A stretch of DNA of 64,000 nt from Gilliamella mensalis. GTDB taxonomy: Bacteria > Pseudomonadota > Gammaproteobacteria > Enterobacterales > Orbaceae. Both the position numbers and the translations under genes were made by a program. Of this stretch, positions 3,294-62,193 are shown piece after piece (the first letter of the stretch is position 1; the number at the start of each line of letters is the position of its first letter). The DNA lies in NCBI RefSeq assembly GCF_900103085.1, contig NZ_FMWR01000008.1, forward strand, positions 124,001-188,000, written 5' to 3'. The notes under the pieces were generated by a model. That model had not been told where the DNA came from, made no database searches, and worked only from the letters and a program-made list of their open reading frames with translations.

Positions 3294-4658
3294 TTATGAT
3301 TCAAAAATGGTTTTATGCAGAATTTTAATAATTGACTCTGCGTCGTTACTTTTTGCTAATAGGCAAAGATTGTGAGTACTTGCCCCATAACAGCAAAGTC
3401 TAATAATAAAATCATCTAATACACCAAACACCTCTTTTGCTATACCTTGTGTTGAAGTTAGGTTATTTCCAATAATAGCAATTAATGCTAAGTCCTCTTC
3501 AACTGTTACATGACACACGGTTGATAGTTCATCAAATAATTCTTTTGTTAACAAACTATTGCCGTTAGTGTTAGTGCCTGTAGTATCAATAGTTAATGCG
3601 ATACTTACTTCTGATGTTGTGACTAAATCGACCGAAATATTATGTTTGGCTAATATTGTAAACACATTAGCTAGAAAACCTTGTGCATGTAGCATGTTTA
3701 AACTAGTAAGTGTTAATAATGTTTGCTTGCGACGTAGCGCTAACGCTCTAAATACTGGTAATTTAGATGTAATGCTGTTAGTGTTGTAAACAATAGTTCC
3801 TCCTTCTTGAGGCGCTTTGCTTGAACCAACAAAAACAGGGATATTGCTACGCACTGCTGGTACTAGTGTTGCTGGGTGTAGTACTTTTGCACCAAATGTT
3901 GCCATTTCGGTTGCTTCTGCAAATGATATTTCATCAATGCGTTTAGCTGCTGGCGTAATACGAGGATCGTTAGTATAAATTCCTGCAACATCAGTCCAAA
4001 TGTCAATTTGGGTGGCATTCAATGCTTCACCTAATAACGCTGCGGTATAATCGCTTCCCCCACGGCCTAAAGTGGTGGTTTTGCCTGAACTTTCACTACC
4101 GATAAATCCTTGTGTTACAACGATGCTATGACTGTTTAGTGATTTTAAATGCGCACAGCAAAGCTGTTTAATATCTTCAATTTTAGGTGTGGCTTTACCA
4201 AATTTATCATCGGTGCGCATAACTTTACGGACGTCAAACCATATGGCATTTTTTTGTTTTTCTTTCAATATTTCGACAAACAGTTTTGAAGACATAATTT
4301 CACCGTGACTAACAAGCTCGTCTGTTAATGCTGGTGAAGTAGCTAAACTTGCGGCTTCTGACAAAGAGGCTATGTTAGCAATAATTTTGTCAATTTCAGT
4401 TCGTAGTGCGGGATTTTCAGGTAATTGTTCTAAGATGTTGTATTGGATTGATTGGATTTTGGCAATATGTTGAGATCGAACTTCGATATCACGTCCTTCA
4501 GCTAAGGCGACTAATAAATTTGTCACGCCAGCAGATGCCGATAGTACCACAACTTTTACGTTAGGATTATTTATTACAATATTGGCACTATTTACCATTG
4601 AAGGATAATCGGCAACACTAGTACCACCAAATTTAGCAATTACAAATGATGTTTCCAT
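3294..4658 (-). CDS. lysC: Lysine-sensitive aspartokinase III
   Basis: Phosphorylates aspartate at the entry to the lysine/threonine/methionine pathway. The 454-residue protein (E. coli LysC 449) has the kinase motif KFGGTSV at 9-15, the TLGRGGSDYTAALLG substrate/ATP loop near 200, and two C-terminal ACT-type domains (about 310-450). It is monofunctional, with no homoserine dehydrogenase domain. The lysine riboswitch directly upstream and the length place it as the lysine-inhibited isozyme rather than ThrA or MetL. Confidence 0.95.
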   Translation of the reverse strand: METSFVIAKFGGTSVADYPSMVNSANIVINNPNVKVVVLSASAGVTNLLVALAEGRDIEVRSQHIAKIQSIQYNILEQLPENPALRTEIDKIIANIASLSEAASLATSPALTDELVSHGEIMSSKLFVEILKEKQKNAIWFDVRKVMRTDDKFGKATPKIEDIKQLCCAHLKSLNSHSIVVTQGFIGSESSGKTTTLGRGGSDYTAALLGEALNATQIDIWTDVAGIYTNDPRITPAAKRIDEISFAEATEMATFGAKVLHPATLVPAVRSNIPVFVGSSKAPQEGGTIVYNTNSITSKLPVFRALALRRKQTLLTLTSLNMLHAQGFLANVFTILAKHNISVDLVTTSEVSIALTIDTTGTNTNGNSLLTKELFDELSTVCHVTVEEDLALIAIIGNNLTSTQGIAKEVFGVLDDFIIRLCCYGASTHNLCLLAKSNDAESIIKILHKTIFES

Positions 4659-48607: not shown

Positions 48608-49094
48608 TTTCAATATAATCGGCGTTTTATTTTTTCTTATTCAATTTATTTTCTCATGTTTCACCTTTTTAGTTATCACACTATAGGCATAGTGAAATAA
48701 ACTGTACGCGAGATTCAAATTCCAATTTAGAAAACTATCTGCTTCAACCCTCACAACTTGTATTAAATATCACTTTTTTACTGCGGTATAATCGAATATC
48801 TCCAAAGCGGATTCCAATTCCGCATTGGTATTTCATAAAACCTAAATAATTTAAAATAAATAAATTAAAATCAATTTGTTGAAATATATTTTTTTATAGT
48901 TGTTTTTTATTGTTTATTTTATGGCGGTAAAATGGCGGTTGCTTTTGGTTTAAAAATGATCTAATTATTTATTGTGTTAATATTTTAATTTATTCCTGAT
49001 TTTTATGTGGTTTTATATTTTAAATATTAATATATTAGAATATTGACCTATAAGTTGTAAAATTTCTACTTGATAATCAGTCTTATAATAAATA
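48608..49094. other. tRNA operon 3' flank and left arm of the element
   Basis: No gene. Contains the attL core (48811-48830) and, inside the element, a tandem ATGGCGGTAAAATGGCGG at 48931 that recurs beside attR and is a likely integrase arm-binding site. The rest is AT-rich. Confidence 0.6.
48811..48830. repeat. attL core
   Basis: ATTCCAATTCCGCATTGGTA, identical to 62174-62193. It contains the inverted repeat CCAAT-TCCGC-ATTGG expected at a tyrosine-recombinase crossover site. Located 203 bp past tRNA-Gln, not inside a tRNA gene. Confidence 0.85.
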
Positions 49095-49114
49095 TACTGT
49101 ATATAATTACAGTA
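49095..49114 (+). promoter_or_regulatory. LexA (SOS) box
   Basis: TACTGTATATAATTACAGTA is a near-perfect match to the gammaproteobacterial LexA operator (CTGT-N8-ACAG; only two spacer bases differ from the ideal palindrome). Its centre contains TATAAT, so LexA would sit on the -10 box. It lies 17 bp before the small ORF at 49131. Confidence 0.85.
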
Positions 49115-49130
49115 TAAAGAGGGATAGGCG

Positions 49131-49310
49131 ATGGGTGAAAGAAGTGAAGTAACAAATCATATTAAACTAGAGCAAGCCGAATTTGTTAATAAATTAATGA
49201 TAGATGCAGAGCTATCAGAAGATGATATAAAAATAGGGTTGTGTTTATTGCATGAATTATTATTGAAGATTAAAAGTAGAAATGATTCTGAAGTTAAAGG
49301 CAATCAATAA
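49131..49310 (+). CDS. Putative SOS-controlled 59-residue protein
   Basis: Short frame beginning MGERSEVTNHIKLEQAEF, mostly helical, with an acidic middle (AELSEDDIKI) and a hydrophobic LCLLHELLLKI segment. GAGGGATAGGCG precedes the ATG. I do not recognise the family. In phage 186 an SOS-controlled gene (tum) makes a CI antirepressor; position and control suggest a similar induction role, which is inference. Confidence 0.7.
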   Translation: MGERSEVTNHIKLEQAEFVNKLMIDAELSEDDIKIGLCLLHELLLKIKSRNDSEVKGNQ

Positions 49311-49311
49311 T

Positions 49312-49336
49312 AGCGGGGGGAAAGCCCCGTTTTTTA
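49312..49336 (+). terminator. Terminator after the SOS-controlled ORF
   Basis: Stem CGGGG / CCCCG around GGAAAG, followed by six Ts. Confidence 0.85.
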
Positions 49337-49340
49337 TTTA

Positions 49341-49770
49341 TATTTATTAACAACCATTTTTTTAATTACTATAAACAGCACAAAGATTTTTTTACACGAA
49401 CCTGTGCAGTTTGAATATTTAACATTAAATATTATTAACCCCACCAAAATAATTAAATGAACGATAAACACCATTAATATAGTTCCGAGTTGATGCCAGC
49501 AATAGAGTTATTAAGTTATATCGCATTACGCTTAGAATTTTATTTGTAAAATAAACTAAATTTTTTGTAAATTAAATTTGCATTATTATGTCGAAAGTGA
49601 TATCGTTTTTTTTGCGGTCGTCATCTTCGTAAAAACATTGCCATACGAGATAAATACAAGGTAACCGCTTTTAATTCTTTTTTTCAAAACGTTTTTGTGA
49701 AGTTTTTAGACAACAATAACAATAATAAAATAACAATAATTATAAAATAATAATAAGTAAGGAAGTTTAG
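49341..49770. other. Intergenic region before the lipase gene
   Basis: 430 bp, AT-rich, no coding frame. It should contain the lipase promoter; GTAAGGAAG lies just before the lipase ATG. I see no clear operator. Confidence 0.45.
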
Positions 49771-50670
49771 ATGTATAAAATTAAACCTAAAGAAAAACTC
49801 GTTAAAACAAAATATCCACTCGTACTTGTCCATGGGTTATTTGGTTTCGACCGAATTATGGGATATCCATATTTCTTTAATATTGCTGAATCTTTAAGAA
49901 AACAAGGTACTGAAGTTTATACTGTTGCAATTTCAGCTACCAATTCAACTGAAACACGTGGTGAACAGCTGCTGGCTGAAGTTAAAAAAATACTTAAAAA
50001 AACGGGTGCCCAAAAAGTAAATCTGATTGGTCATAGCCAAGGTGCGCCTACGAGCCGTTATGTTGCTGCGATCCATCCTGAAATTGTCGGTTCAGTAACT
50101 TCTGTAAATGGTGTGAATTTCGGTTCTGAAATTGCAGATTTAATGTTGGAAATTCTTTCTGGCAAATTGGTTGGCCCTACTGCTGATGTGATTGTTGAAA
50201 CATTTATGAAGTTTGTTGGTCTATTTAGTACTAAGCCATTTTTACCACAAGATTTTAGAAGCGCCCTAAAAAGCTTGTCGACTAAAGGTACTAAAGCGTT
50301 TAATAAAAAATATCCGCAAGGTCTACCTAAACGATGGGGTGGTGAGGGTAAAGAGCTAGAAACTAATGGTGTTTACTACTATTCTTGGAGTGGTATTATT
50401 AAATCAAAACCACTTAATGAAGGTTTAAATATGGCAGATCCATCGCATGCTATTTTGGTTGCATTAGGTACTTTCTTCAAAAAAGAGCGTAGACAAAATG
50501 ATGGTCTGGTTGGCCGTTATAGCACTCACTTGGGTAAAGTTATCAGTTCTAACTACCAGATGGACCATTTCGATGCAGTCAATCAAATTGCTGGTGTGCA
50601 TCCGATTAAACCAGATCCGGTAAAACTTTATTTAGAACATGCTGCACGCTTGAAATCTAAAGGTCTATAA
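49771..50670 (+). CDS. Triacylglycerol lipase, Proteus type (family I.1)
   Basis: 299-residue alpha/beta hydrolase. HG at 21-22 (oxyanion hole), nucleophile Ser89 in GHSQG, and predicted Asp244 (NDGLVGR) and His266 (DHFD) complete the triad. [15 protein letters not shown] and [14 protein letters not shown] match Proteus mirabilis lipase, which likewise lacks a signal peptide and a lipase-specific foldase. How it leaves the cell is unknown. Cargo of the element: it has its own terminator and faces the lysis genes. Confidence 0.92.
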
Positions 50671-50689
50671 ATTATTTTTATGGCAAAAG

Positions 50690-50724
50690 CTGAATCCTGT
50701 GATTTTACAGGGTTCAGTTTTTTT
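50690..50724 (+). terminator. Terminator after the lipase gene
   Basis: Stem CTGAATCCTGT / ACAGGGTTCAG with a six-base loop and seven Ts. Confidence 0.93.
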
Positions 50725-50939
50725 ATTTATATTGGGCATTTATTTGTTGGTGCTGTGTGGGAATTAGGCTGAATTTAAATAACTAAATATTAACAAGCAC
50801 ACTGTTGGAAACAGTGTTGTTTATTATTATTAACATACTTGTGTAAATACGTTAACAACGGTTAGCCGTCGATGATAGGTGTTTTTTCTTGTTATTACAA
50901 TCTTCGAGTACTTTTTAAAGCGAGTTAATTTTTTTAATG

Positions 50940-51203
50940 TTAGTGTTGATTTTGTTCTTGCTGACATTGGTAAATTATTTCGACTTGTAACGCACATTGA
51001 TGCCATGCTGTTAAGATTGCTTGGTTATCATCAAGTAATGATCGATTATGTCTTAAATTATTCATGGGAAGATAGCAGGGTGTTACGACTGGACAACCAG
51101 CTTTGATAATCTGTACTTCCTTTGATTTCTGGCCGTGTGTACAACCGTTTAACAGTATCGGGCAGATCACTATCAGACCACATACGTATTTGTTCATTTT
51201 CAT
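50940..51203 (-). CDS. Outer-membrane spanin subunit (Rz1/LysC-like lipoprotein)
   Basis: 87-residue lipoprotein with lipobox LLNGC (Cys21). Its start lies inside the i-spanin gene in a different frame, overlapping by 146 bp, the nested arrangement of P2 lysB/lysC. The mature part keeps the family pattern AGCPVVTPCYLP. With the inner-membrane spanin it bridges and fuses the membranes in the last lysis step. A second in-frame ATG at codon 3 could be the start. Confidence 0.88.
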   Translation of the reverse strand: MKMNKYVCGLIVICPILLNGCTHGQKSKEVQIIKAGCPVVTPCYLPMNNLRHNRSLLDDNQAILTAWHQCALQVEIIYQCQQEQNQH

Positions 51204-51504
51204 TAATAAGTTGCTCCAATTGTTGTTGATATTGACGATTTAACGTATCTGCTACTTGCAGTTGATTTTTTTGTGCGATTAGTTTGCGCTCATTGGCTTG
51301 ATACTGATCGCTGAGTTTAATAAATTCATTGTTTTTAACATCAATGAGTTCAATTAATGTTTGCTTATCATCCTGTAGTTGCTGATTGCTGGCGTATAAT
51401 TGTTTATTTTTGGTGCTCAATAGCCGATTTTGAAAATAGCTAAATAACAAACAAATAAGCAATAGCAACCAGGGTAACAGTTTGCTTGTCAGTCTATTTT
51501 GCAT
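51058..51504 (-). CDS. Inner-membrane spanin subunit (Rz/LysB-like)
   Basis: 148-residue protein with one N-terminal membrane helix (about 8-25) followed by a long coiled coil (about 30-115), the i-spanin plan. LPDTVKRLYTRPEIKGSTDYQ near the end is common in P2 LysB-like proteins. Its start overlaps the end of the endolysin gene by 11 bp. Confidence 0.88.
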   Translation of the reverse strand: MQNRLTSKLLPWLLLLICLLFSYFQNRLLSTKNKQLYASNQQLQDDKQTLIELIDVKNNEFIKLSDQYQANERKLIAQKNQLQVADTLNRQYQQQLEQLINENEQIRMWSDSDLPDTVKRLYTRPEIKGSTDYQSWLSSRNTLLSSHE

Positions 51505-52069
51505 AGTTTTCGTATGCCTCCTTGAGTTTTATGTCATAGTTATTTTTTTTGTAGGCTGGGCCGTTGTATAGTTTTGCAAACGTTGAAAAATCTTTATCTT
51601 TCATCGCTTTTAATAGTTTACAATTTGATTGATGCGAGATAAAACGATAAAACGCATCTAACTGTTGTGCTTCGCTTTCAATCATATGTTGTTCGAAGTG
51701 CTGGGCTGAGGGATAACCGAGCAATTGCCAGTAAAAGCCCATGATTTGGAATAGCCCCCAACTAGTACTTTCGATTGCCGAATCAATATCAATTTTTTTT
51801 GCCTGTGCTAATCGATAATTTTCACTTATTCCACCTAAGTAACCGCCTGCAGATGAGTTGACTAAATCAGGATGTTTTTTAGCAAGCTGTTCGACATTAA
51901 ATCCCTGTTTTTGTAGCTGGCGATAGAAAATATGCCGCTCAAATAAGATTACCGGTAACCCTTTTTGAAAGCCTGCTGATCGAGATTCCACTTTTGTTAT
52001 AGCCTGCATTATGGCTAATTCAATGCCAAGTTTGTTGGCGATATTTTGTAATAGTTCAATTGTTATCAT
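51494..52069 (-). CDS. Phage endolysin, N-acetylmuramidase (DUF3380) family
   Basis: 191-residue peptidoglycan hydrolase. TKVESRSAGF includes the predicted catalytic Glu28, followed by ILFERHIFYRQL, and later ESTSWGLFQIMGFYW and FAKLYNGPAYKKNNYD, all family blocks. No signal peptide, so it depends on the holin encoded just upstream. Its ATG directly follows the holin stop. Confidence 0.92.
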   Translation of the reverse strand: MITIELLQNIANKLGIELAIMQAITKVESRSAGFQKGLPVILFERHIFYRQLQKQGFNVEQLAKKHPDLVNSSAGGYLGGISENYRLAQAKKIDIDSAIESTSWGLFQIMGFYWQLLGYPSAQHFEQHMIESEAQQLDAFYRFISHQSNCKLLKAMKDKDFSTFAKLYNGPAYKKNNYDIKLKEAYENYAK

Positions 52070-52447
52070 TTATGGTTTTTTTCCTCTAAAGTTATTAAAT
52101 ATGTCGGTTGGGTCATCAAATTTTTTGATTATCCAAAGCAGTAGTTTGACGCTCACCGCCGAGGAGACTAATGCCCCAAATCCGAGTGGTATTGTTGGTT
52201 GAATATTCGATGGAAAGAACGGTATCAATAGATTTAACGTCATTTCGGACAGTAGCATGCCTATCGAAAAAGAGATAAAAAATAGGATGATACGGCGAAG
52301 TGTGCTGATGCGATCTTCACTAATTACCAGTAATATTGAGCCACAAAGTGCGCCTAAAATAACGCCATTTTCGATATTTGGATAGATAACCGATATCAAA
52401 AAATGGTTGATAATAGCTGTGAATGTTGTTGTAGTTTGTTCTGTCAT
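52070..52447 (-). CDS. Phage holin
   Basis: 125-residue membrane protein with three hydrophobic helices (about 25-43, 49-73 and 80-108) and a charged tail, the class I holin layout. Located directly upstream of the endolysin in the P2 gene Y position, after the remains of gene X. Confidence 0.8.
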   Translation of the reverse strand: MTEQTTTTFTAIINHFLISVIYPNIENGVILGALCGSILLVISEDRISTLRRIILFFISFSIGMLLSEMTLNLLIPFFPSNIQPTIPLGFGALVSSAVSVKLLLWIIKKFDDPTDIFNNFRGKKP

Positions 52448-52457
52448 TCCATTAATC

Positions 52458-52636
52458 TCATTTTAGTTTAAACGTATGTTGCTCAGGCACTGCTTCGGGC
52501 ACATTTAACACGGTATTGATTGGCAATATTGCAGGTGATTTTTATAGCATTGAGTTATTTTGATAGATAATTTCAGCAAGCTTTTGGGGTTTGCTAAAAA
52601 TGCTATAGGCTAGGGCATCAACGGTTTATTTGACAT
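52458..52636 (-). pseudogene. Tail protein X (P2 gpX) pseudogene
   Basis: If one A is restored in the run near the fourth codon, the frame reads MSNKTVDALAYSIFS, KPQKLAEIIYQNNSML, a premature TAA, then KSPAILPINTVLNVPEAVPE and HTFKLK. This is the LysM-like gpX pattern (start YG-x, middle A-x-NP, end LP-x-GT-x-P). So it carries a frameshift and an internal stop. In P2, gene X lies directly before the holin gene Y, as here, showing the element derives from a phage that had tail genes. Confidence 0.75.
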
Positions 52637-52811
52637 TGCATAAACAATCATTAAATCAATTGTAGGGTTGATCGTCATTTGCCTAAAATATCACAAATTG
52701 CATAATGTGCATTGCGATATACATTGTCCGTTCTGTCTATATTCGCTTTTTGCTTTTGCGGTTACATTAAAATTAATTTATTCATCAATAAACCGCTTGC
52801 TTATATAGAAT

Positions 52812-52985
52812 TCAATACGTTGATTCGTTATTGATTAATTCGTTTGTTAACTCATTTATAGATGTAAAGCTTTCGGCTTGTTGGCTAACCGCCAGAAATG
52901 TACATGATTTTGCACTGCAATAATCGCACTGTTTAGATGTAGCGTTGTGACGGTCCCGTCCCACCATTGTTTTTCCGTACATCAT
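52812..52985 (-). CDS. Putative 57-residue cysteine-containing protein
   Basis: Frame of 57 codons starting MMYGKTMVGRDRHN, with CDYCSAKSC at residues 20-28 and a helical tail. The three cysteines suggest metal binding, but no known phage zinc-finger family (Ogr, Com) matches clearly. No good ribosome site. It may be a real small early gene or a decayed frame. Confidence 0.35.
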   Translation of the reverse strand: MMYGKTMVGRDRHNATSKQCDYCSAKSCTFLAVSQQAESFTSINELTNELINNESTY

Positions 52986-53493
52986 TAATCGTGATTACAT
53001 ATATAGCAAAATATTACATATTTTCAGATTGTTATCAAGTGATTAGCTAAAAGAAACGTTATTTTTTTTCGATCTCTTCAAATATCAATCGCAGTTTAAA
53101 TAAGCTACGATTAATTTATCCCATTAATAATCGGCGAAGTTATTGACCAGTTGTGGAAGATTGAGGTAAGCATGATAAAAAATATGGTTATTGAATAGAC
53201 CAAACGATAAATTTGCATAACAAGCGATTAAAAAGGCTGATTATCAGACCCGAGAGTATCAAAATAAAGGAATAGAAAAAACTATAACAATGTAAACAGA
53301 AAACAATATGCTCAAAACCCTCGTTGAGTTTTAAATAGTTTATCTTATTAGGTGATCTTGTTTGCTTAGCCGTTAGATAAGCAGAGGCACTTTATGTAAC
53401 TATATCTATCGTTTTAATATTCAAACGGTATACAATCCTGAATATTTTTTACAAATTTTAGCTATTCCAACCTATATTTGGCTCTATTCCGCG
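52986..53493. other. Scar region between replication and lysis modules
   Basis: About 500 bp without a convincing gene, where a P2-like phage would have its capsid and tail genes. It holds copy 2 of the 33-bp repeat (53423-53455). Confidence 0.5.
53423..53455 (+). repeat. 33-bp repeat, copy 2
   Basis: Matches 32638-32670 at 32 of 33 positions; located 38 bp beyond the 3' end of the replication gene. Confidence 0.7.
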
Positions 53494-55524
53494 CTATTTT
53501 TGGCGTAAATCGATGATAATCAACTTGTCGTTAACCCATTTTATGAGCAATTTGTCACTAAATTTTAGTTCTAACCCCGCCAAAAGATGATTTAACTGAT
53601 GCGGGTTGTAATTTATTTGGTATTTTTTTAGCGCATTTATCACTTTTTGACGCCGATCGTACTGCGATGATTTTTTAATCTGCGTACAGTTATTGACAGA
53701 ACTCCGAGCGTCGCTATCGCTCCTATTTTTAGAGACAATAGCCCACTTGATCAGACGTGTACAGATAAAAGAGACCATGCCAATAATCGGGGAAAATACC
53801 CCTTTAATCTTTTTGACGTCCTCCTCAAATTGGTTTTGTGCTTCTTCGTATGCAATCCTGACCCGCAACTCTTTACGCTTAACCATAGCGCCACCTTGTA
53901 ATTGTGTGTATGCTGCCCAGTCGCCCGCATCAGCTGCCGCAAGCACAGGGTCGATTGCAGCGCTGTCAACTTTTTGGCTACCGAGCCGACGCAGTTCTCG
54001 CCACACAGTCACCGGCGCGCCGCCGATTTGTTGGAATTGACGAATACCCCAACGGCTAGCCCACGCCGTTACGTTCTTCGCCATCTCTTTTAAGTTTTGC
54101 CCGGTTTCATCATCGACTTCGTTATCAAGTTGATAACCGTCAATATTTTTAGAAATATATTTGGCAATGTAGCCGGTTGCCGAGCCTTTTTCTTTTTCGA
54201 TATTCTCAAACTTGAAACGGTTTTCTTGTGCGCCCGGTTCGTTGCCGTCTTCTTTTAGTGCGTACGAGTACATAATGTTATGAACTTTATCTTTGTTTTC
54301 AGGTAGCATAAAAACCAATATATGCCAATGTGGTGTGCCGTCGTGATGGGGTTCGGCAACTCGAAATCCAAAGATTTTGATATTTTCACGATTGAGCTTT
54401 GCCCTGATTTTTGCCCATACGCCGCATAGGTAACGTTGTGCGTCCCGTGGTGTACCGCCGTTCCAGTTTTTGACAAATCCACCTTTAGCATGTACGGCGT
54501 GATATTTTGACGGTGCAGTCAATGTAATAAATGCTCCCTCGTAGCCGAATTCATCCGCAATATCTTCAAACCCTCGCATACGGACCATAAGCTCACAACG
54601 ACGAATGGCTGGGTTGGCATTGGATTTATCGACCTGTAAAACGAGTTCGAATTGCTCACCCGTTTCAGTATTTTCTATACATTGATTTTTCAGCCACTCC
54701 CGATTTTTCCTTTTTTGCTCTCTCCATTCACCTACGCATGTGCGACTGGCATATGGGCTTGCGGATTTCTGAACTTGTCCGGCAGCAATAGCCAAGTGTT
54801 CTCGTTGAAAAGCCCAAGTGCGTTTTAACTTGCTTTGCCACCAGCTATCATCTGATAATTTTGCTAAGGCGATAACAATTTGCTGTTCACTGATTTCATC
54901 TTTTTTATAATCAGCAAAGTAGGGTGCTGTAATTTTTAACGGCTTGAGCTGCTCTAATGCAAATTTATAGATAGCCAGTTCATGGGCGTTATTGCTTAAC
55001 TTAAATTCATCTGTTTCTAAAAATTTGATGATTAGATTTTGCATATAGCTAGCAATTTGCCCACCAAGCTGTTCAACATCGACTTTATCTAAGGTTGGTA
55101 ATATCGATAGCTGTTTATAGAATGCTTGAGCGATTAGGCTTTTACCGGTATTTAATGAATATTTTTTTTGCACTTCAGTGCAGCGAGTTAGCCCACTGGT
55201 TCGCAAATAGGTGTTAGCCGTTTTTGCGCCTTTTTCTTGATATAGTGTTAGGTATTTTCGGGCGAAGTATCTGCCAATGAACTGAGGCGTATCACTAAAA
55301 TAGGGGTGGAAATAGTCATACTCATCCGGGATTTGCTCCCAAAGCGGACGTTCGATAATTGTTAAATCTTTTGGTGGTTTGCGATCTGTGGCATATTGTG
55401 ATTTAGGTTGAATAGATTTGCTTGGCAAAAACTTGCCGACGGTTTCGTAAAAATCACGCATACCACAAAGCAGGGCAAATTTAGCCCTGTTGCTAAGAGG
55501 GGGGAGTTGCGTGATAGTGGTCAT
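53494..55524 (-). CDS. Phage replication endonuclease (P2 gpA-like)
   Basis: 676-residue rolling-circle initiator of the Phage_GPA family. The HUH metal motif is His399-Trp400-His401 (GTPHWHILVF), and the twin catalytic tyrosines are Tyr452 and Tyr456 in GYIAKYISKN. GpA nicks the origin and stays bound to the 5' end. The intact reading frame suggests the element can still replicate. It is the last early gene before the scar. Confidence 0.95.
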   Translation of the reverse strand: MTTITQLPPLSNRAKFALLCGMRDFYETVGKFLPSKSIQPKSQYATDRKPPKDLTIIERPLWEQIPDEYDYFHPYFSDTPQFIGRYFARKYLTLYQEKGAKTANTYLRTSGLTRCTEVQKKYSLNTGKSLIAQAFYKQLSILPTLDKVDVEQLGGQIASYMQNLIIKFLETDEFKLSNNAHELAIYKFALEQLKPLKITAPYFADYKKDEISEQQIVIALAKLSDDSWWQSKLKRTWAFQREHLAIAAGQVQKSASPYASRTCVGEWREQKRKNREWLKNQCIENTETGEQFELVLQVDKSNANPAIRRCELMVRMRGFEDIADEFGYEGAFITLTAPSKYHAVHAKGGFVKNWNGGTPRDAQRYLCGVWAKIRAKLNRENIKIFGFRVAEPHHDGTPHWHILVFMLPENKDKVHNIMYSYALKEDGNEPGAQENRFKFENIEKEKGSATGYIAKYISKNIDGYQLDNEVDDETGQNLKEMAKNVTAWASRWGIRQFQQIGGAPVTVWRELRRLGSQKVDSAAIDPVLAAADAGDWAAYTQLQGGAMVKRKELRVRIAYEEAQNQFEEDVKKIKGVFSPIIGMVSFICTRLIKWAIVSKNRSDSDARSSVNNCTQIKKSSQYDRRQKVINALKKYQINYNPHQLNHLLAGLELKFSDKLLIKWVNDKLIIIDLRQK

Positions 55525-55769
55525 ATTATTTGCTACCTTGTTTATTAAAAATCTTTTTAGCGGGCTGCGAGCCGTGTTATGCCTGTGGGCTAGTGCACCT
55601 TTTTGCCTTTTTATTACCTTTTTGAATTTTTTATTCTATTACTGTCGCTTTATTGTCAGCAGCAATCATGGCGTTAATTGTGTGATGTGCTGATGTGGCA
55701 CAATTTGATCGTAAAATGGTTTTAAATGTGGATTTCATTATTTTGTTAGCTCCTTTGTATAGTCAGTGG
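55525..55769 (-). other. Spacer between dam and the replication gene
   Basis: 245 bp including a possible small gene at 55631-55738; the remainder is AT-rich. Confidence 0.4.
55631..55738 (-). CDS. Putative 35-residue protein
   Basis: Short frame beginning MKSTFKTILRSNCATSAHHT, with AAAGGAG eleven bases before the ATG. Similar tiny genes of unknown function occur between dam and gene A in P2-like phages. Low confidence because of its length. Confidence 0.35.
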   Translation of the reverse strand: MKSTFKTILRSNCATSAHHTINAMIAADNKATVIE

Positions 55770-56585
55770 TTAAATCATTGCTGGTGTTAACACGCCAATA
55801 ATTTCTGTTGCCAGCTTTCGGTTACCGTTAGCGGCAATCATACGTGGAGCTTGGATTGCGTGAATTTTGAATTTATTAAATAGTTCACGTGTTTGAGGAT
55901 TATCACTATTGGAAATAATGGCAATTGCACCGCGCTTAACTGCATCAAACAGACAATTTGCTAACGCTTGAGTTTTGGAGTAATCAAAACCGCTGGGAGT
56001 ATAACCTACAAATGATCCATTAAACGGACTCAGGTATGGCGGATCGCAATAAATAATATCGCCAGATTTTGCATGCGTAATGGTTGATTTAAAATCACAT
56101 GCAACAAGTACAACATCGACATCACATAATTTTTTACTAAATTTGATAAGTTCCTCTTTGGGGAAATAGATATTGTTATATTTACCTTTTGGCACGTTGA
56201 AGTTGCCATTTTTGTTATATCGGCAAAGACCATTGAAGCAGTGTCGATTTAACCAAATAAATTTTGCTGCCTGTGCTAAGGTATGCCTTTTAGGGGATAA
56301 ATTAAACTGGCTTCTTAAATCATAATAATCAATCTGGCTATCAAAAAGTGCTTTTGTTTCATTTATCAAGAGGGTTGAATCACTTTTTAACCATCGATAA
56401 ACGTTAATCAAATCAGGGTTGTTATCTGCTAAAATATAACTTTTAGCATCAACATTAATAAAAACATTGCCTGCACCAACAAATGGCTCGATAAATCGTC
56501 CATTGGTAGGTAAATGAGGTCGTAATAATTCTATAATGCGCCCCTTTCCCCCTGGCCATTTTAAAAATGATTTTTTAATATTCAT
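55770..56585 (-). CDS. Phage DNA adenine methyltransferase (Dam type)
   Basis: 271-residue class D12 (alpha) N6-adenine methyltransferase. FVGAGNVF at 35-42 binds AdoMet, FLKWPGGKGR near the start is family-typical, and the catalytic DPPY is at 181-184. GATC is the probable target. ATG has GGAG six bases upstream. Phage Dam may protect from restriction or time replication. Confidence 0.93.
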   Translation of the reverse strand: MNIKKSFLKWPGGKGRIIELLRPHLPTNGRFIEPFVGAGNVFINVDAKSYILADNNPDLINVYRWLKSDSTLLINETKALFDSQIDYYDLRSQFNLSPKRHTLAQAAKFIWLNRHCFNGLCRYNKNGNFNVPKGKYNNIYFPKEELIKFSKKLCDVDVVLVACDFKSTITHAKSGDIIYCDPPYLSPFNGSFVGYTPSGFDYSKTQALANCLFDAVKRGAIAIISNSDNPQTRELFNKFKIHAIQAPRMIAANGNRKLATEIIGVLTPAMI

Positions 56586-56679
56586 TGATACTCCTTAATC
56601 CAGATGTATGTTATTTGAGATTGAAAAGATTTGGGGCAAGTGCCCCAATTAGATGATTGATAAGTGAAATTTGTTTTGC

Positions 56680-56928
56680 TTATGCGTCTTTGATTTCAAA
56701 TTCAATAATATCGAATGATCGATCAACATCTGAATCATATGCACCAATGGTTTCACAAATTATGACTGCATCACCACATGAAATCCCAAAAATTGAGTTG
56801 TGGTTTAAGGTATTAGACTGCTCTTTAGGAACGATAATCACTCGCTGGTTATAACCGGCAATTAATTCAAATAAAGTAGCTTCTACATTTATGATTTTAT
56901 GTGAATTTTCTGGAAATCTATTAAACAT
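56680..56928 (-). CDS. Hypothetical early phage protein
   Basis: 82 residues from the ATG at 56928, preceded by TTGAGAAT. It begins MFNRFPENSHKI and contains ATLFELIAGYNQRVIIVPKE and GISCGDAVIICETIGAYDSD. An upstream in-frame ATG (57060) overlaps the preceding gene and adds a low-complexity Asn-rich stretch, so I prefer the shorter form. The pattern of a short beta-rich domain with a GD-x-VII element recalls ASCH/DUF3850 proteins, but this is a guess. Confidence 0.55.
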   Translation of the reverse strand: MFNRFPENSHKIINVEATLFELIAGYNQRVIIVPKEQSNTLNHNSIFGISCGDAVIICETIGAYDSDVDRSFDIIEFEIKDA

Positions 56929-57022
56929 TTTTTTATTCTCAATTGTATTATTAAAGTTATTGTTAGATGTTGCTAACCAATGACAATTTGAGCGCAGGGT
57001 ATTAAATTCCGACCATATTTGT

Positions 57023-57244
57023 TTATCTTTGTTTTCTGCTAACTGACCTTTGCATTTCATTTAATTGCTGGCAGTCTGCACAAAGTTGACATCCTTTAAT
57101 TAATTGCCGGCGTTTTTCAGGGATCGGCTCGTTACATTCAATGCAGTGTGTTGCTGATTCACCTTGAAACGTTTTGCGCTCCGCAATGAGATGATCAAGC
57201 TCTAATTGAGCAATCTCATTGGCTTGGTCGATAACATCACGCAT
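57023..57244 (-). CDS. TraR/DksA family zinc-finger protein
   Basis: 73 residues. The C4 zinc finger is CIEC (34-37) and CADC (55-58) with a 17-residue gap, plus N-terminal DVIDQANEIAQLELDHLIAE and PIPEKRR, as in TraR-like phage proteins. TraR proteins bind RNA polymerase and mimic DksA with ppGpp. Overlaps the gene upstream by 3 bp (TGATG). Confidence 0.9.
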   Translation of the reverse strand: MRDVIDQANEIAQLELDHLIAERKTFQGESATHCIECNEPIPEKRRQLIKGCQLCADCQQLNEMQRSVSRKQR

Positions 57245-57459
57245 CAGGAATCATGCTCATAATTTTCGCATCGCATCGCTTCGGCTTCTTGTTCAAGGAG
57301 TTGGGCAGATTCAGAGGCCGTTAAGTAATCAGTACGAATGTGAGCGGCTAACCGTTCAAGTTTTGCTGTAAATACGTCACATAGTCCACGTTTGGTTTCT
57401 TCTTTTGCTTGTTTTAACGCTTGCAATAATGCATCGCCAGATAATGTAGTTATTTTCAT
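57244..57459 (-). CDS. P2-like early protein (DUF2732)
   Basis: 71-residue helical protein beginning MKITTLSGDALLQALKQAKE and including SESAQLLEQEAEAM, which fits the DUF2732 proteins found between cox and gene A in P2-like phages. Function unknown. It begins just after the previous gene's stop. Confidence 0.75.
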   Translation of the reverse strand: MKITTLSGDALLQALKQAKEETKRGLCDVFTAKLERLAAHIRTDYLTASESAQLLEQEAEAMRCENYEHDS

Positions 57460-57804
57460 TCATGCCACCTTTTTCGTTTCTTTGATAAAATCCTGCTCTT
57501 CGCAAATTGCAAACGCATCAATGATTGATTGCAATCGACGCAAACCTTTTTTTAGCGCATCAATTTCTTTGTCGTTCAGATCGTCATAACGCATCTCCCA
57601 AGTGTGGGTAAATTGACTATCTGCGTTGTAAATAGTTGTTGTACGCTGTTCGATGCCTGATGCGCTCAGCAGTAAACGCTTTTGACCCGGCTTTAAACGG
57701 TTAAAAGCCGATCTGGCTAAACTACGCTTACCGCTTAATATCTGATGAAACTCACGCAAAATACTGCGTTGATTAGTTGCTTGGTTGTTTTGCGTTGTGT
57801 TCAT
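57460..57804 (-). CDS. P2-like early protein of unknown function
   Basis: 114 residues. I start at ATG 57804 with AGGTGATC just upstream; an in-frame GTG three codons earlier is possible. KRSLARSAFNRLKPGQKRLLLSASG and DLNDKEIDALKKGLRRLQ are conserved-looking basic, helical blocks, perhaps of the DUF5347 group. Overlaps the small gene upstream by 32 bp. Part of the early operon. Confidence 0.7.
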   Translation of the reverse strand: MNTTQNNQATNQRSILREFHQILSGKRSLARSAFNRLKPGQKRLLLSASGIEQRTTTIYNADSQFTHTWEMRYDDLNDKEIDALKKGLRRLQSIIDAFAICEEQDFIKETKKVA

Positions 57805-57952
57805 GCTGATCACCTGTTATCGGCTGATGCAATTTAATGACATGCCCATTTGGCTTCTCAACCCAACCTTTAGGATTATGGTTGTTAATTTGGATATAAA
57901 TTAAAACTGGTTTATTTGCGACTTTAGGGCTTAAATAGATTGCGTGGCTCAT
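57773..57952 (-). CDS. Hypothetical 59-residue early protein
   Basis: Frame of 59 codons starting MSHAIYLSPKVANKPVLIYI, with AAAGG eight bases before the ATG, followed by QINNHNPKGWVEKPNGHVI. The beta-rich composition and position just after cox argue for a real gene. I do not recognise the family. Confidence 0.6.
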   Translation of the reverse strand: MSHAIYLSPKVANKPVLIYIQINNHNPKGWVEKPNGHVIKLHQPITGDQHEHNAKQPSN

Positions 57953-57963
57953 GTCTAAACCTT

Positions 57964-58188
57964 TTAAATATTAATTGTTGGGCTTCTGTCTGCGAGCGCT
58001 TCGGCAACTAACGCTGCGTTATTGATTAAAATGATTGAGCGCTTGCCGGTGATAGTCTTTTTTCGAATTGGTAAATAACCCTTGTGGACATAATCTTTTA
58101 TGGTTTTTTCTTTCATGCCTGAGTGTTTTGCATATTCCTCAACAGTCATATATGCCGCACCGAAAGTTATTGATAAATCTTGTTTCAT
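57964..58188 (-). CDS. Cox-like excisionase/repressor
   Basis: 74-residue winged-helix protein with MTVEEYAKHSGMKEKTIKDY and GYLPIRKKTITGKRS, the HP1/P2 Cox pattern of a MerR-like HTH reading GKLPI. Cox represses the lysogenic promoter and directs excision with Int. ATG after AGAGGAAATG. First gene of the early operon, divergent from the repressor. Repeat motifs upstream and beside attR are its probable binding sites. Confidence 0.85.
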   Translation of the reverse strand: MKQDLSITFGAAYMTVEEYAKHSGMKEKTIKDYVHKGYLPIRKKTITGKRSIILINNAALVAEALADRSPTINI

Positions 58189-58346
58189 AGTGCATCATTT
58201 CCTCTTTATGGTTTATATTCAGTTATATTCGGTTTGATTAGGATAAAAAAATAACCGAATCGGTATTTTTTATTATGATTACCTTTTAGGTTTGTGTCAA
58301 TACCTTATGGGTATGTTTTTTCTTTTTGGTATTTTTTGGAGTTAAT
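58189..58346. promoter_or_regulatory. Lysis-lysogeny switch (cox / cI promoters)
   Basis: Contains direct repeats TTATATTCAG and TTATATTCGG (58213-58232), the inverted repeat ACCGA-A-TCGGT (58254-58264), and ATACC-TTATG-GGTAT (58300-58314). The first motif recurs near attR (62085-62117), which fits Cox sites; the palindromes fit CI operators. Both assignments are inferred from P2/186 organisation. Confidence 0.7.
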
Positions 58347-58715
58347 ATGATTCAGTTCGACAGTGCTAAAAACATAATAGATAGAATGGTTAGCGCTTAC
58401 AGATTAAAAACAATGAAAGCGTTATGTGAATATTTTGGTGTTGGCATTAGCGTTCTTTCCAATAGGGTAGTGCGAAATACAATCCCTGCAGAATATATAA
58501 TACAGTGCGCATTAGATACGGGTGCTAATCTATTATGGCTTTGTACTGGCGAAGGTGAATCGAACATTGACGGCGTAAAAACAGAGAAAAAATCAATCGA
58601 AATATCCAATGAAACATTGGAAAAATTAGAGCGTATTGTGGCGTTAAAAAATAGCGGTGCAATAACTAATGATGAATATCAATTATTGAAAGGTAGTATT
58701 TTAAAAAAAGACTAA
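58347..58715 (+). CDS. CI-type phage repressor with SHOCT-like tail
   Basis: 122 residues from ATG 58347 (GGAG six bases upstream). Residues 1-70 match the Phage_CI_repr HTH domain (DRMVSAYRLKTMKALCEYFG, SVLSNRV, NLLWLCTGEG) of 186-like repressors. The usual C-terminal oligomerisation domain (186 CI is 192 residues) is missing. Instead residues 92-120 read LEKLERIVALKNSGAITNDE then YQLLKGSIL, which fits the short SHOCT tail seen at protein C-termini. Divergent from cox. Confidence 0.8.
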   Translation: MIQFDSAKNIIDRMVSAYRLKTMKALCEYFGVGISVLSNRVVRNTIPAEYIIQCALDTGANLLWLCTGEGESNIDGVKTEKKSIEISNETLEKLERIVALKNSGAITNDEYQLLKGSILKKD

Positions 58716-58982
58716 TGATAAAAGATGAGTGAGCGTTCGGGTGGTAGATAAATTAAACTTTACAGATATGAATAAAAATAAAGAACTTTTAGTTCGCATT
58801 GTCCATTATCTTCAAGGCATAAATATAACATCTAATCAAAATAGGCAACCGCTTATGCACAGTTGTATCGCTCATAATTGCCAAAAAATTGATACATTTG
58901 CATTTCACCTGTGTGGAATAAGCCGGTAAGCAATTAATGATTTATAAGCTAAGTTGATCTGATAAATATTTAGGTGAATATC

Positions 58983-61046
58983 ATGATTGAAATAAACACG
59001 CTCGCTGATATTGAATCTTTAACCGAAACAGAAGAAATCGAGGTTAAATCTGCACAAGGGAAAGATCACCAAGGGCAGCTACCCAAAGATTTCTGGCCCA
59101 CTTATTCAGCAATGGCAAATTCTAAAGGTGGTTGGGTTATTCTTGGCGTGGAAGAAAAATCCAATAAATTTAATCTTATTGGTATTAAAGATGTAACCAA
59201 AATAAAGAAAGAGTTAGTTACCTCATTAAATAATAAAGAAAAAGTTAATTATAATTTATTAACTGATAAGGATATTTTAGAAAAAAAAATTGATAACAAA
59301 ACGATATTAATTATTCGTATTCATCCAGCAGCAAGAGATAAAAAACCTATTTATATTAACAATAGCCTAGTTAATGCTTACATTAGAATGAATGACAGTG
59401 ATATTAAATGTGATGAAGCAAAAATACGGCAAATGATTGTAGAGCAAGATCCACAAGGAACAGACTCACGCATTTTAGATAATTTTACGATGGATGACAT
59501 CGACATAAAAAGCTTGCAACAATACAGAAATTTATTCTCTGCTAGGCATCCAGATCATCCTTTTTTAAAAGGCGATTTACTTTCATTTTTAAGTAAAATT
59601 GGTGGTTGGAGAAAAGATCGACATACGAAAAAAGACGGATTAACCATTGCAGGATTACTCATGTTTGGTAAATGGGATGCTATTACTGAACTTAACCCCA
59701 AATATGCCTTGGACTACATAGAACGACCTGAAAATAAAATAGATACACGTTGGATAGATCGCGTATTTTATGATGGTAGTTGGTCAGGTAATGTATTTGA
59801 TTTTTATCAACTTATTTATCCTAAATTAGTATCTGATTTAAAAGTGCCTTTCAAGATTAAAGATGGTGTACGGCAATCTGATTCTGAAATACATCAAGCA
59901 CTTCGTGAGGCTTTAGTTAATACCTTAGTTCACGCTGATTACCTAACCGGCAGAGTTTCGATTTTAGTGGTTAAAAGACCTGATCTGTTTGGATTTCGAA
60001 ATCCCGGTTTAATGCTCATCTCTAAAGAAGATGCCATAAAAGGCGGGAACAGTGAATGTCGCAACCCCAAAATGCATCAAATGTTTTTATATATTGGTTT
60101 AGGGGAGCGAGCCGGTTCTGGTATTCCACGAATATACTCAGGTTGGGAACAAGCTAATTGGAAAGTGCCCAATTTAAGAGAAAGATATGATATCGAGCAG
60201 ACTTTATTAGAGTTATCAACAACGAGCTTAATACCGGATAATATTGTCGATTATTTAATTAAAAAATTCGGACATGACAACTTTTCAAAATTAGATGATT
60301 TTGAAAAAATGATATTAGCAACAACCGCACAAGAAAATTGGATAAATCACCAACGAGCTTGTGAGTTAACCTCTAAGCATTCAAGAGAAGTCACACTCGC
60401 CTTACCTAATTTAGAAAGAAAAGGATTTCTTGTATCTCAAGGAGAGAAAAAAAATAAAATATATAAGCTATTTGGTGAAGAAGAATTACTCATGCCAGAA
60501 GATATTCTTAATATTAATGATAGTCAAATAGATACAGATAATGTAATTAAAAGCGCAGCGCCTTTGACATCAAAGGGCAATAACTCCGGTTATAACGATA
60601 CCGACTGCGGTTATAAAAATAATAACTCCGGTTATAAGCAGCCTAACTCCGGTTACAACGACACTTCATCCAATCATCATAAAAACTCAACAACCAACAA
60701 AGATTCATTTGGAAGAATAATAGATGAACGTGTAGACAAACCATTTATATTCGAATTGACACAACTTGACCATAACTTCCGACAAAGCTTAGAAAAAATA
60801 GCTCGACCAACGATAAAAAAGAGAATTAACTTTGATGAAATGAAAACAGTCTTAATTTCACTTTGTAAAGGACACTATATCTCATTATCTGCTCTTGCTA
60901 TACTAGTTAATAGAACACCTGATAGATTACGACAAGGGTATGTTAAACAATTAACCCAACAAGGTATTCTTCGTATGGCATTTCCTCATATGCCAAACAT
61001 TCCCAAACAAGGTTATACTACCGTGGAAGATCCTGAGGAGTCTTAA
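58983..61046 (+). CDS. AlbA_2/Schlafen-type ATP-binding protein (candidate defence gene)
   Basis: 687 residues from ATG 58983 (AGGTGA upstream). AlbA_2 (Schlafen) domain about 1-135 with ESLTETEEIEVKSAQG and GGWVILGVEE. Then a winged region and a GHKL-like ATPase (HATPase_c_4) about 300-400 with REALVNTLVHADY and GERAGSGIPRIYSGW, and winged helices to about 500. Residues 534-560 repeat NSGY-type units four times, after which another helical/winged domain closes the protein. It sits between repressor and integrase, the usual P2 cargo slot for anti-phage genes. Regulator or defence effector; unproven. Confidence 0.8.
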   Translation: MIEINTLADIESLTETEEIEVKSAQGKDHQGQLPKDFWPTYSAMANSKGGWVILGVEEKSNKFNLIGIKDVTKIKKELVTSLNNKEKVNYNLLTDKDILEKKIDNKTILIIRIHPAARDKKPIYINNSLVNAYIRMNDSDIKCDEAKIRQMIVEQDPQGTDSRILDNFTMDDIDIKSLQQYRNLFSARHPDHPFLKGDLLSFLSKIGGWRKDRHTKKDGLTIAGLLMFGKWDAITELNPKYALDYIERPENKIDTRWIDRVFYDGSWSGNVFDFYQLIYPKLVSDLKVPFKIKDGVRQSDSEIHQALREALVNTLVHADYLTGRVSILVVKRPDLFGFRNPGLMLISKEDAIKGGNSECRNPKMHQMFLYIGLGERAGSGIPRIYSGWEQANWKVPNLRERYDIEQTLLELSTTSLIPDNIVDYLIKKFGHDNFSKLDDFEKMILATTAQENWINHQRACELTSKHSREVTLALPNLERKGFLVSQGEKKNKIYKLFGEEELLMPEDILNINDSQIDTDNVIKSAAPLTSKGNNSGYNDTDCGYKNNNSGYKQPNSGYNDTSSNHHKNSTTNKDSFGRIIDERVDKPFIFELTQLDHNFRQSLEKIARPTIKKRINFDEMKTVLISLCKGHYISLSALAILVNRTPDRLRQGYVKQLTQQGILRMAFPHMPNIPKQGYTTVEDPEES

Positions 61047-61052
61047 TATAAC

Positions 61053-62060
61053 GTGAGTATCAGAAAACAAAATAACGGTAAATGGCTATTTGAAAAATAC
61101 CTGGAAAGTGGGCGTAGAATTCGCAAAACCTTCACAACAAAAGGGGAAGCGCTTGCCTACCAGGCGTATATTGATGAACAAGCAGCAACTAAGCCGTGGA
61201 TTGCTGAAAAGCAAGATCGTAGGCGATTATCTGATTTAGTTAATACATGGTATCAATCACATGGACAAACACTCAAAGACGGTGAACGAGTAAGAAAGAT
61301 ACTTGAATTTATTTGTCAATCAACAGGTGATCTAATAGCGGGTAATTTTACCACCAAAACCTTTACCGATTATCGAAAAAAACGCATGAATGGCGAACTG
61401 TACAGAACCGAATCAGTAAAAACAGTATCATTACGCACGTTAAACCTCGAATTGGTTTATCTTCGAGCCATGTTTAATGAATTGACACGATTAGGAGAGT
61501 GGGAACGCCCAAACCCCCTTGAAAATATCAAACAGTTTAAAACTGATGAATCAGAAATGGCGTTTTTGACCAATGACCAAATCAAACTATTATTAAACGA
61601 ATGCCAAAATAGCAACGTTATACATTTATCATTAATGGTAAAAATAGGACTTTCTACAGGGGCAAGGTGGTCAGAAATAGCCAACCTAAAATTATCTCAA
61701 ATCACGCCATACAAAATTACATACATCAAGACCAAAGGAAGACGTAATCGAACAGTACCAATAACAAAAGAACTATATGAACAGATCCCAAAAGAAAACA
61801 ACAAAATCTTTAGTGGCACACATGAAAACGCATTTAAAAGCGCAATTGACAGAACAGGGATAGCGTTACCAGACGGACAATTAACACATGTATTGCGCCA
61901 CACATTTGCGAGTCATTTTATGATGAATGGGGGCAATATCCTAGTTTTACAAAAAATACTTGGTCATACAGACATAAAAACAACAATGAGATACGCCCAC
62001 CTCGCCCCTGATCACCTAGAAGAAGCAACGATATTAAATCCATTATCTAATATAAAATAA
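61053..62060 (+). CDS. int: Tyrosine integrase, P2 type
   Basis: 335-residue recombinase (P2 Int 337). The catalytic set is Arg205 (STGARWSE), His279 and Arg282 (HVLRH), His305 (GHTD) and nucleophile Tyr314 (MRYAHLAP). The arm-binding N-domain covers about 1-65 and the core-binding domain about 66-165. Translation begins at GTG 61053 with GAGGAG upstream, six bp after the cargo gene. It lies 113 bp from attR. Confidence 0.96.
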   Translation: MSIRKQNNGKWLFEKYLESGRRIRKTFTTKGEALAYQAYIDEQAATKPWIAEKQDRRRLSDLVNTWYQSHGQTLKDGERVRKILEFICQSTGDLIAGNFTTKTFTDYRKKRMNGELYRTESVKTVSLRTLNLELVYLRAMFNELTRLGEWERPNPLENIKQFKTDESEMAFLTNDQIKLLLNECQNSNVIHLSLMVKIGLSTGARWSEIANLKLSQITPYKITYIKTKGRRNRTVPITKELYEQIPKENNKIFSGTHENAFKSAIDRTGIALPDGQLTHVLRHTFASHFMMNGGNILVLQKILGHTDIKTTMRYAHLAPDHLEEATILNPLSNIK

Positions 62061-62120
62061 ATGGCGGTTAAATGGCGGTTAAGTTCGGTTATACTCGGTT
62101 TTCATCAGTTATATTCAGAT
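62061..62120. promoter_or_regulatory. Right attachment arm: integrase and Cox-type repeats
   Basis: Tandem ATGGCGGTTAA units at 62061-62081 match the ones near attL (48931-48950), as expected of integrase arm sites. Just beyond come GTTCGGTTATACTCGGTT and CAGTTATATTCAG, which resemble the repeats in the cox/cI switch. Confidence 0.65.
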
Positions 62121-62173
62121 TTTAACCAATTGATTTTTTTATAAACCATTGATTTTAAAAAGACAGTATGAGA

Positions 62174-62193
62174 ATTCCAATTCCGCATTGGTA
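62174..62193. repeat. attR core
   Basis: Identical 20 bp to 48811-48830. The flank reads on as GATTCGAATCCCTGTGCATCA, which looks like a tRNA T-arm fragment but cannot fold as one. Confidence 0.85.

What the first reader, a model, noticed from the sequence alone, without database searches (positions are those of the whole stretch)
49095..49310. Near-ideal LexA box driving an unknown 59-residue gene next to attL
The 20-bp site differs from a perfect LexA palindrome only in two spacer bases and overlaps the TATAAT. The ORF it controls has its own terminator and sits just inside the left end. In phage 186, LexA-controlled tum encodes an antirepressor of CI. This ORF may be the element's DNA-damage sensor, acting on the unusual repressor.
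Basis: partly seen in the sequence, partly recalled or inferred. Interest (0 to 1): 0.75.

Follow-up and report, generated by a model that had tools for sequence, protein, structure and literature searches.

The report
DNA-damage switch protein of a prophage
A 59-residue protein in a shrunken virus remnant of a bee-gut bacterium is a relative of the protein that wakes phage 186 after DNA damage, and is most likely the remnant's own damage-operated off-switch for its repressor.

Summary
A near-ideal LexA box (49095-49114, two mismatches to the palindrome; 0.01 such sites expected in the window) overlaps the promoter of a 59-codon ORF with its own terminator, inside attL of a 13.4-kb P2/186-type element in Gilliamella. 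The -10 is better read as TATACT (49093-49098) than TATAAT.

The ORF is a stand-alone TumA: the N-terminal half of phage 186 Tum, annotated as TumA in phage PSP3. A profile of enterobacterial TumA proteins only, run on 6,285 frames, gave 26 hits at E<=1, all TumA-family; this ORF was the only one among 621 window frames. A LexA box precedes 17 of 20 Orbaceae tumA genes and 0 of 9 paralogues. The Tum analogy is thus supported as homology.

Best mechanism: RecA, LexA cleavage, TumA, loss of CI binding, early operon on. CI is HTH plus short tail, without a RecA-cleavable domain. The last steps are inferred.

TumA is a new member of a known kind. More surprising is its carrier: head and tail genes are gone, yet 15 of 17 genes have open counterparts with dN/dS below 0.35 in a second species.

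The parts
48811..48830 (.). attL, 20-nt direct repeat
49070..49075 (+). -35 hexamer TTGATA of the tumA promoter
   Evidence: pattern found at 10 of 20 Orbaceae tumA genes
49093..49098 (+). -10 hexamer TATACT, overlapping the left end of the LexA box
49095..49114 (+). LexA box TACTGTATATAATTACAGTA
49118..49123 (+). likely ribosome-binding site AGAGGG
   Evidence: read by eye
49131..49310 (+). tumA homologue (SOS59), 59 codons, stand-alone Tum N-terminal domain
49312..49331 (+). intrinsic terminator of tumA
49771..50670 (+). alpha/beta hydrolase (esterase/lipase-like)
50940..52447 (-). lysis cassette: holin, endolysin (muramidase), LysB/Rz-like and LysC/Rz1-like spanin genes
   Evidence: holin, endolysin, Rz-like; LysC-like by place only
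52448..53493 (.). gap without a recognised gene, with sequence related to tailX/headL of a full-length prophage, next to the place where the head genes are missing
   Evidence: with the map
53494..55524 (-). P2 gpA-type replication initiator
57964..58188 (-). Cox-like excisionase and repressor
58347..58715 (+). CI repressor: PF07022 HTH plus short SHOCT-like tail (SHOCT match below its cut-off), no protease-type C-terminal domain; presumed target of TumA (the ORF list gives an upstream TTG start at 58326)
58974..61046 (+). Schlafen/AlbA_2 domain protein
61053..62060 (+). tyrosine integrase
62174..62193 (.). attR

Best explanation
The ORF is tumA, a LexA-controlled antirepressor gene of a P2/186-type element. 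In the resting cell LexA sits on the box and blocks the promoter, while CI keeps the cox/early operon silent. DNA damage activates RecA, LexA is cleaved, and the short monocistronic transcript makes a 59-residue helical-hairpin protein. This protein binds the element's CI and stops it from holding its operators, so cox, dam, gpA and possibly the downstream lysis cassette are expressed. Shown by sequence: the box and promoter, the terminator, homology to Tum/TumA, conservation of box and gene, the CI lacking a cleavable domain, and low dN/dS. Inferred: LexA occupancy, binding of TumA to this CI, derepression, excision and lysis.
For: Homology: among 94 proteins (38 of 186, 38 of HP1, 17 of the window, 1 paralogue) profiles of the family hit, outside the family, only 186 Tum (E=0.0022 with 13 SOS59-type members; 2.6e-5 with 3 paralogues added; all others E>0.7). 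Profile-profile comparison with six enterobacterial Tum/TumA proteins: probability 94%, E=1.2e-7. Blind test: a profile of enterobacterial TumA only gave 26 hits (24 distinct genes) at E<=1 among 6,285 frames of the window and of fetched Orbaceae stretches (fetched because they hold such genes or CI/gpA); all 26 are TumA-family or its paralogues, and the window ORF was the only hit among 621 window frames (E=0.0064). PSP3 tumA is annotated 'similar to 5' end 186 tum; UV induction of prophage'. PMC3121763 (passages read): Tum = antirepressor + DinI fusion; in PSP3 the upstream gene carries the antirepressor activity (personal communication cited there).
Need: CI is HTH plus tail.
Linkage: all 17 gpA loci found in 44 Orbaceae genomes (15 genomes, E<=1e-20) have a tumA in the same element.
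Selection: dN/dS 0.23 for tumA and 0.05 for CI between two species.
Family function in a lab strain: in E. coli HS a delta-tum or lexA(Ind-) mutant of P2-like DuoHS is not induced by mitomycin C (PMC12055606, passages read).
Against: No experiment on this protein. Identity to 186 Tum-N is about 20% and the window gene alone is weak in the whole-genome blind search (E=0.129, behind unrelated places from E=0.02); the link rests on intermediates. It matches no Pfam, PHROG or NCBIfam model. It lies near attL, not downstream of gpA as in 186. 3 of 20 Orbaceae tumA genes (G040, G035, one G015 copy) lack a proper box, as does the ENT90 relative. The C-terminal part of CI differs between 186-type phages and this element, so the contact surface may differ. 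No ogr gene was found, so it is unclear how the lysis cassette would be transcribed.
Confidence: 0.8

Rival explanations
1. It is a TumA, but its real target is the CI of other P2-like prophages (trans-acting antirepressor); the element's own CI is only a by-stander. A capsid-less element would profit from waking a helper.
For: Gilliamella P2-like CIs share a near-constant tail, and the TumA core is identical in two phages with different CI HTH halves (L240 and L241). Trans-acting antirepressors are known in Salmonella (PMC3121763, passages).
Against: Only one gpA locus was found in this genome, so no resident P2-like helper is evident. The element's own CI has dN/dS 0.05.
Confidence: 0.1
2. 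Relic: box and ORF are leftovers of a dead prophage, without present function.
For: Head and tail genes are gone and tailX/headL survive only as related sequence without a recognised gene. In the twin element of G008 the DksA-like early gene is broken (two stops and a frame change) and orf126 has an early stop. A solitary tumA among host genes exists in G015.
Against: 15 of the 17 mapped genes have open counterparts at the same chromosomal site in a second species, at dS 0.32-1.19, with dN/dS 0.01-0.32; host neighbours have dS 0.25-0.56. Box and gene are both kept.
Confidence: 0.08
3. An SOS-controlled small protein with another job: RecA modulator like DinI, or a TisB-like membrane toxin.
For: Such genes also carry LexA boxes (recalled); 186 Tum has a DinI half.
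Against: The DinI half is absent; the conserved part is the Tum N-terminal half. The predicted fold is a helical hairpin of mean pLDDT 84 with a charged sequence.
Confidence: 0.02

Closest known systems
TumA of Salmonella phage PSP3 (AY135486, 29134-29316)
   Same: Stand-alone Tum N-terminal domain of about 60 residues, LexA box 40 nt upstream, P2/186-type phage.
   Different: PSP3 has tumB (DinI-like) directly downstream and tumA follows gpA; here no DinI gene was seen and tumA lies at the attL end. PSP3 CI reads as two HTH segments and a large C-terminal part (by eye).
Tum of coliphage 186
   Same: Homologous N-terminal half; LexA box overlapping the -10 (annotation); works with a CI whose N-terminal half resembles this one.
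   Different: 186 Tum is a 146-residue fusion with a DinI-like half; 186 CI is 192 residues with a C-terminal domain.
Short Yersinia phage TumA-like genes (vB_YenM_201.16, 06.16-2, 324)
   Same: No DinI half in the reading frame, near-perfect LexA box.
   Different: Located after gpA, between it and the portal gene.
PHROG 698 and PHROG 1993 (unknown function)
   Same: TumA-type families; 186 Tum hits both, and relatives of the window protein hit them weakly (best E 0.0047 and 0.085).
   Different: No function assigned in PHROGs; the window protein itself has no match.
LexA-controlled antirepressors GfoA/GftA (Gifsy) and AntC (N15)
   Same: Same circuit logic (PMC3121763, passages).
   Different: Other repressor families as far as I recall; sequence relation not tested here.

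Membership tests
Tum/TumA antirepressors | Homology to the Tum N-terminal half | tested here: met
   weak for the window gene alone in whole genomes
Tum/TumA antirepressors | LexA box overlapping the promoter | tested here: met
Tum/TumA antirepressors | Carried by a P2/186-type element with a PF07022 CI and a Cox/Apl gene | tested here: met
Tum/TumA antirepressors | Located downstream of gpA (usual, not defining) | tested here: not met
   here next to attL; downstream of gpA in G005, G010, G040, G013, G042 and others
Tum/TumA antirepressors | Binds CI and prevents operator binding | not testable with these tools
   needs a binding or reporter assay
DinI family | DinI domain | tested here: not met
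   no Pfam/PHROG/NCBIfam match; DinI matches only the other half of Tum
Phage satellites (P4-like, PICI) | Integrative element without its own capsid genes | tested here: met
   no match to 186 or HP1 head or tail genes between the att sites
Phage satellites (P4-like, PICI) | Packaging (cos) site shared with a helper | tested here: inconclusive
   one strict cos-like motif found nothing in the window or in the relatives scanned
Phage satellites (P4-like, PICI) | Independent mobility | tested here: inconclusive
   the only twin found is at the same site with divergence near that of its neighbours, which fits vertical descent

The most novel reading that the evidence does not exclude
A P2-derived element has shed its head and tail genes and survives across Gilliamella species as a self-contained, SOS-triggered replicate-and-lyse device or helper-packaged satellite, with TumA as its only trigger. 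In its full-length cousins one TumA disarms a whole tandem array of 3-4 CI repressors of different DNA specificity, by acting on a part that all of them share.
Probability: 0.2. Interest if true: 0.72.

Novelty: new member of a known kind. Interest (0 to 1): 0.45.

Why it matters
It gives a likely function to a small-protein family (PHROG 698/1993 types) listed as unknown, and shows that the LexA-Tum induction circuit of coliphage 186 is general in the P2-like prophages of Orbaceae seen here (17 of 17 gpA loci have a tumA). Their bee-gut neighbour Frischella makes the DNA-damaging compound colibactin, reported to induce a prophage of Serratia in the bee gut (PMC12990990, passages read), so the circuit has a plausible natural trigger. 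That paper, however, reports the inhibition of Gilliamella by Frischella as colibactin-independent and finds resistance genes widespread in bee-gut bacteria. The stand-alone 59-residue form is a small natural model for asking which part of CI a Tum-type antirepressor grips, with repressors that consist of just an HTH and a short tail.

Tried and rejected
Mimicry: I considered that TumA imitates the SHOCT-like hairpin of CI; profile-profile comparison gave no support (probability 0.5%), so it was dropped. Fold search of the TumA model in the viral library gave no match better than E=1; a short helical hairpin is not informative. No solved structure matches the family up to E=10; 186 Tum matches only DinI, in its other half.

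Target on CI: among 12 group-1 elements TumA similarity follows the CI tail (Mantel r=0.58, p=0.012) more than the HTH half (r=0.20, p=0.14); over all 17 elements both correlate (0.85 and 0.73, p=0.0002 each). Shared descent is not removed, and with 186-type phages mainly the HTH half is shared. Unresolved. That test used 12 group-1 and 5 group-2 elements. For L244 CI and TumA come from two contigs with the same genome number, taken as one phage. Second TumA copies of G019 and G023, the gpA elements of G015, G022:C76 and G035, and CI loci without a known TumA (G012, G041, G017, L242, L243) were left out.

Satellite idea: no cos-like motif found, with one strict pattern. The TATAAT reading of the -10 was rejected. 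Selection: two of 17 element genes (DksA-like, orf126) were left out because no full-length counterpart was there; one search shows them broken in G008. For this reason I lowered the best explanation from 0.82 to 0.80 and the novel case from 0.22 to 0.20 and raised the relic rival from 0.06 to 0.08 when checking. The dN/dS values are plain pairwise estimates without a test.

Literature: no paper held both 'Gilliamella' and 'antirepressor' or 'Gilliamella' and 'tailocin'; searches for repressor arrays found nothing relevant. These cover only the open PMC library. Shearwin 1998 and Brumby 1996 are cited through other papers; I did not see them.

Full report
WHAT IS THERE. The 20-bp LexA box at 49095-49114 has two mismatches to the ideal palindrome and is the only match with up to three mismatches in the window, where 0.01 are expected. 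In the whole 2.28-Mb genome it is the only zero-mismatch match to the pattern written from it; the next (one mismatch) lies at a gene I recognise as recA, and genes I recognise as dinB and recN have weaker ones. lexA is present with two box-like sites in front (by eye). The promoter is TTGATA-17-TATACT, whose -10 overlaps the left end of the box. The ORF 49131-49310 is followed by an intrinsic terminator at 49312-49331. The element is bounded by a 20-nt repeat at 48811 and 62174.

THE ELEMENT. From attL: tumA, an alpha/beta hydrolase, spanins, endolysin, holin, gpA, dam, small early genes, cox, CI, a Schlafen/AlbA protein and integrase. No head, tail or ogr gene was found with 186 and HP1 proteins as queries. 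The 1-kb gap between gpA and holin holds sequence related to tailX/headL of a full-length prophage. Of 44 genomes of the family one other (G008, Gilliamella App4-10 by locus L023) has nearly the same gene set; the Schlafen-type protein occurs only in these two at E<=1e-20, the hydrolase in these two and in two genomes of another genus. The G008 element lies at the same chromosomal place, with a different repeat at its ends. Of 17 mapped genes, 15 have open counterparts there, with dN/dS 0.01-0.32 at dS 0.32-1.19; eight neighbouring host genes have dS 0.25-0.56. The other two, DksA-like and orf126, are broken in G008, and its Schlafen-type gene has a stop three codons from the end. So the shortened element is old and most of it, tumA, CI, cox, int, gpA and lysis genes included, has been kept, while some early genes have begun to decay in one lineage.

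WHAT THE ORF IS. tblastn in 50,697 phage records found nothing. Within the family, 10 of 44 genomes have relatives at E<=0.01, this genome included, and viral contigs gave 6 and then 11 loci, partly the same. A profile of such relatives picked 186 Tum out of 94 proteins. The match is to the Tum N-terminal half, which exists alone as TumA in PSP3, in Fels-2 and three similar phages, and in Yersinia phages, each with a LexA box upstream. In Erwinia phage ENT90 an N-terminal-only relative lacks such a box. The reverse, blind search with enterobacterial sequences alone returned only TumA-family genes among 6,285 frames (26 hits at E<=1, 24 distinct genes). In 44 whole genomes its 8 hits below E=0.01 are all TumA genes; unrelated places appear from E=0.02, and the window gene comes at E=0.129. 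The identity therefore rests on the family, not on the window sequence alone.

CONSERVED CONTROL. 17 of 20 Orbaceae tumA genes have CTG-N10-CAG within 120 nt upstream, against 0 of 9 paralogues in the same kind of element. Over 106 distinct gene/box pairs from viral contigs, genome contigs and the window, 103 have it. Each of the 17 gpA loci found in 44 genomes (15 genomes; two split pairs counted once each) has a tumA in the same element, either downstream of gpA (the 186 tum place) or near the ogr/attachment end.

MECHANISM. The element's CI is a PF07022 HTH with a linker and a two-helix tail, SHOCT-like though below the Pfam cut-off; there is no protease-type domain that RecA could trigger. 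In 186 Tum is the anti-CI factor made from a LexA-controlled promoter (PMC7708051, passages), and in E. coli HS the P2-like DuoHS needs both LexA cleavage and tum for induction (PMC12055606, passages; whether that tum is the stand-alone form I could not see). The predicted TumA fold is two helices, 2-23 and 30-57 (mean pLDDT 84, pTM 0.59). I infer that TumA binds CI and frees the early promoter. The contact is open: within Gilliamella group 1 TumA similarity follows the CI tail, but with 186-type phages mainly the HTH half is shared.

VERDICT. Observation confirmed, interpretation supported and strengthened from analogy to homology. As a gene it is a new member of a known kind; the surprise lies in its carrier and in its cousins.

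Noticed in passing
G023:C44:127956-129455 (L092), G019:C24:3061-4268 (L093), G012:C11:102544-103674 (L094): Tandem arrays of 3-4 CI repressors, next to cox in G023 and G019. HTH halves differ, and several types recur as the only CI found in other phages; the C-terminal tail is almost constant. One G012 copy has an internal stop. Possibly multi-phage immunity.
   Followed up: partly
G013:C70:1507-27631 (L101, L247), G016:C6:74213-100806 (L104, L250), also G034:C17 as far as fetched: P2-type islands with int, CI, cox, gpA, LexA-box tumA, lysis and tail genes and several tail-fibre genes, but no match to 186 or HP1 head genes (phmmer): they look like tailocins. G003, G015, G022:C76 and G035 look similar but were only partly read, or are degraded (G003).
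   Followed up: partly
L038:2195-2410 and 2531-2905, L039:14786-15001, L040:17588-17869, L041:3441-3680 and 4244-4435, L042:6538-6756, L043:3693-3977, L044:5783-6004: Two paralogue types of TumA in the full prophages, 9 genes, none with a LexA box; role unknown.
   Followed up: partly
window 48811-62193 and G008:C35:329478-342009: Capsid-less P2-type element at the same tRNA-cluster site in two Gilliamella species; 15 of 17 genes open in both with low dN/dS, two broken in G008.
   Followed up: yes
L060:1219-2079 (PSP3 cI): PSP3 CI reads as two HTH segments in a row before the C-terminal part (by eye).
   Followed up: no
L045:15252-15440 (G015:C1): Solitary tumA with LexA box and promoter among host genes, no matches to 186/HP1 phage proteins around: a leftover that may still be SOS-expressed.
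   Followed up: partly
window 60579-60679: Four imperfect copies of a repeat spaced 21 nt apart inside the Schlafen-type gene; in G008 the stretch is shorter.
   Followed up: no
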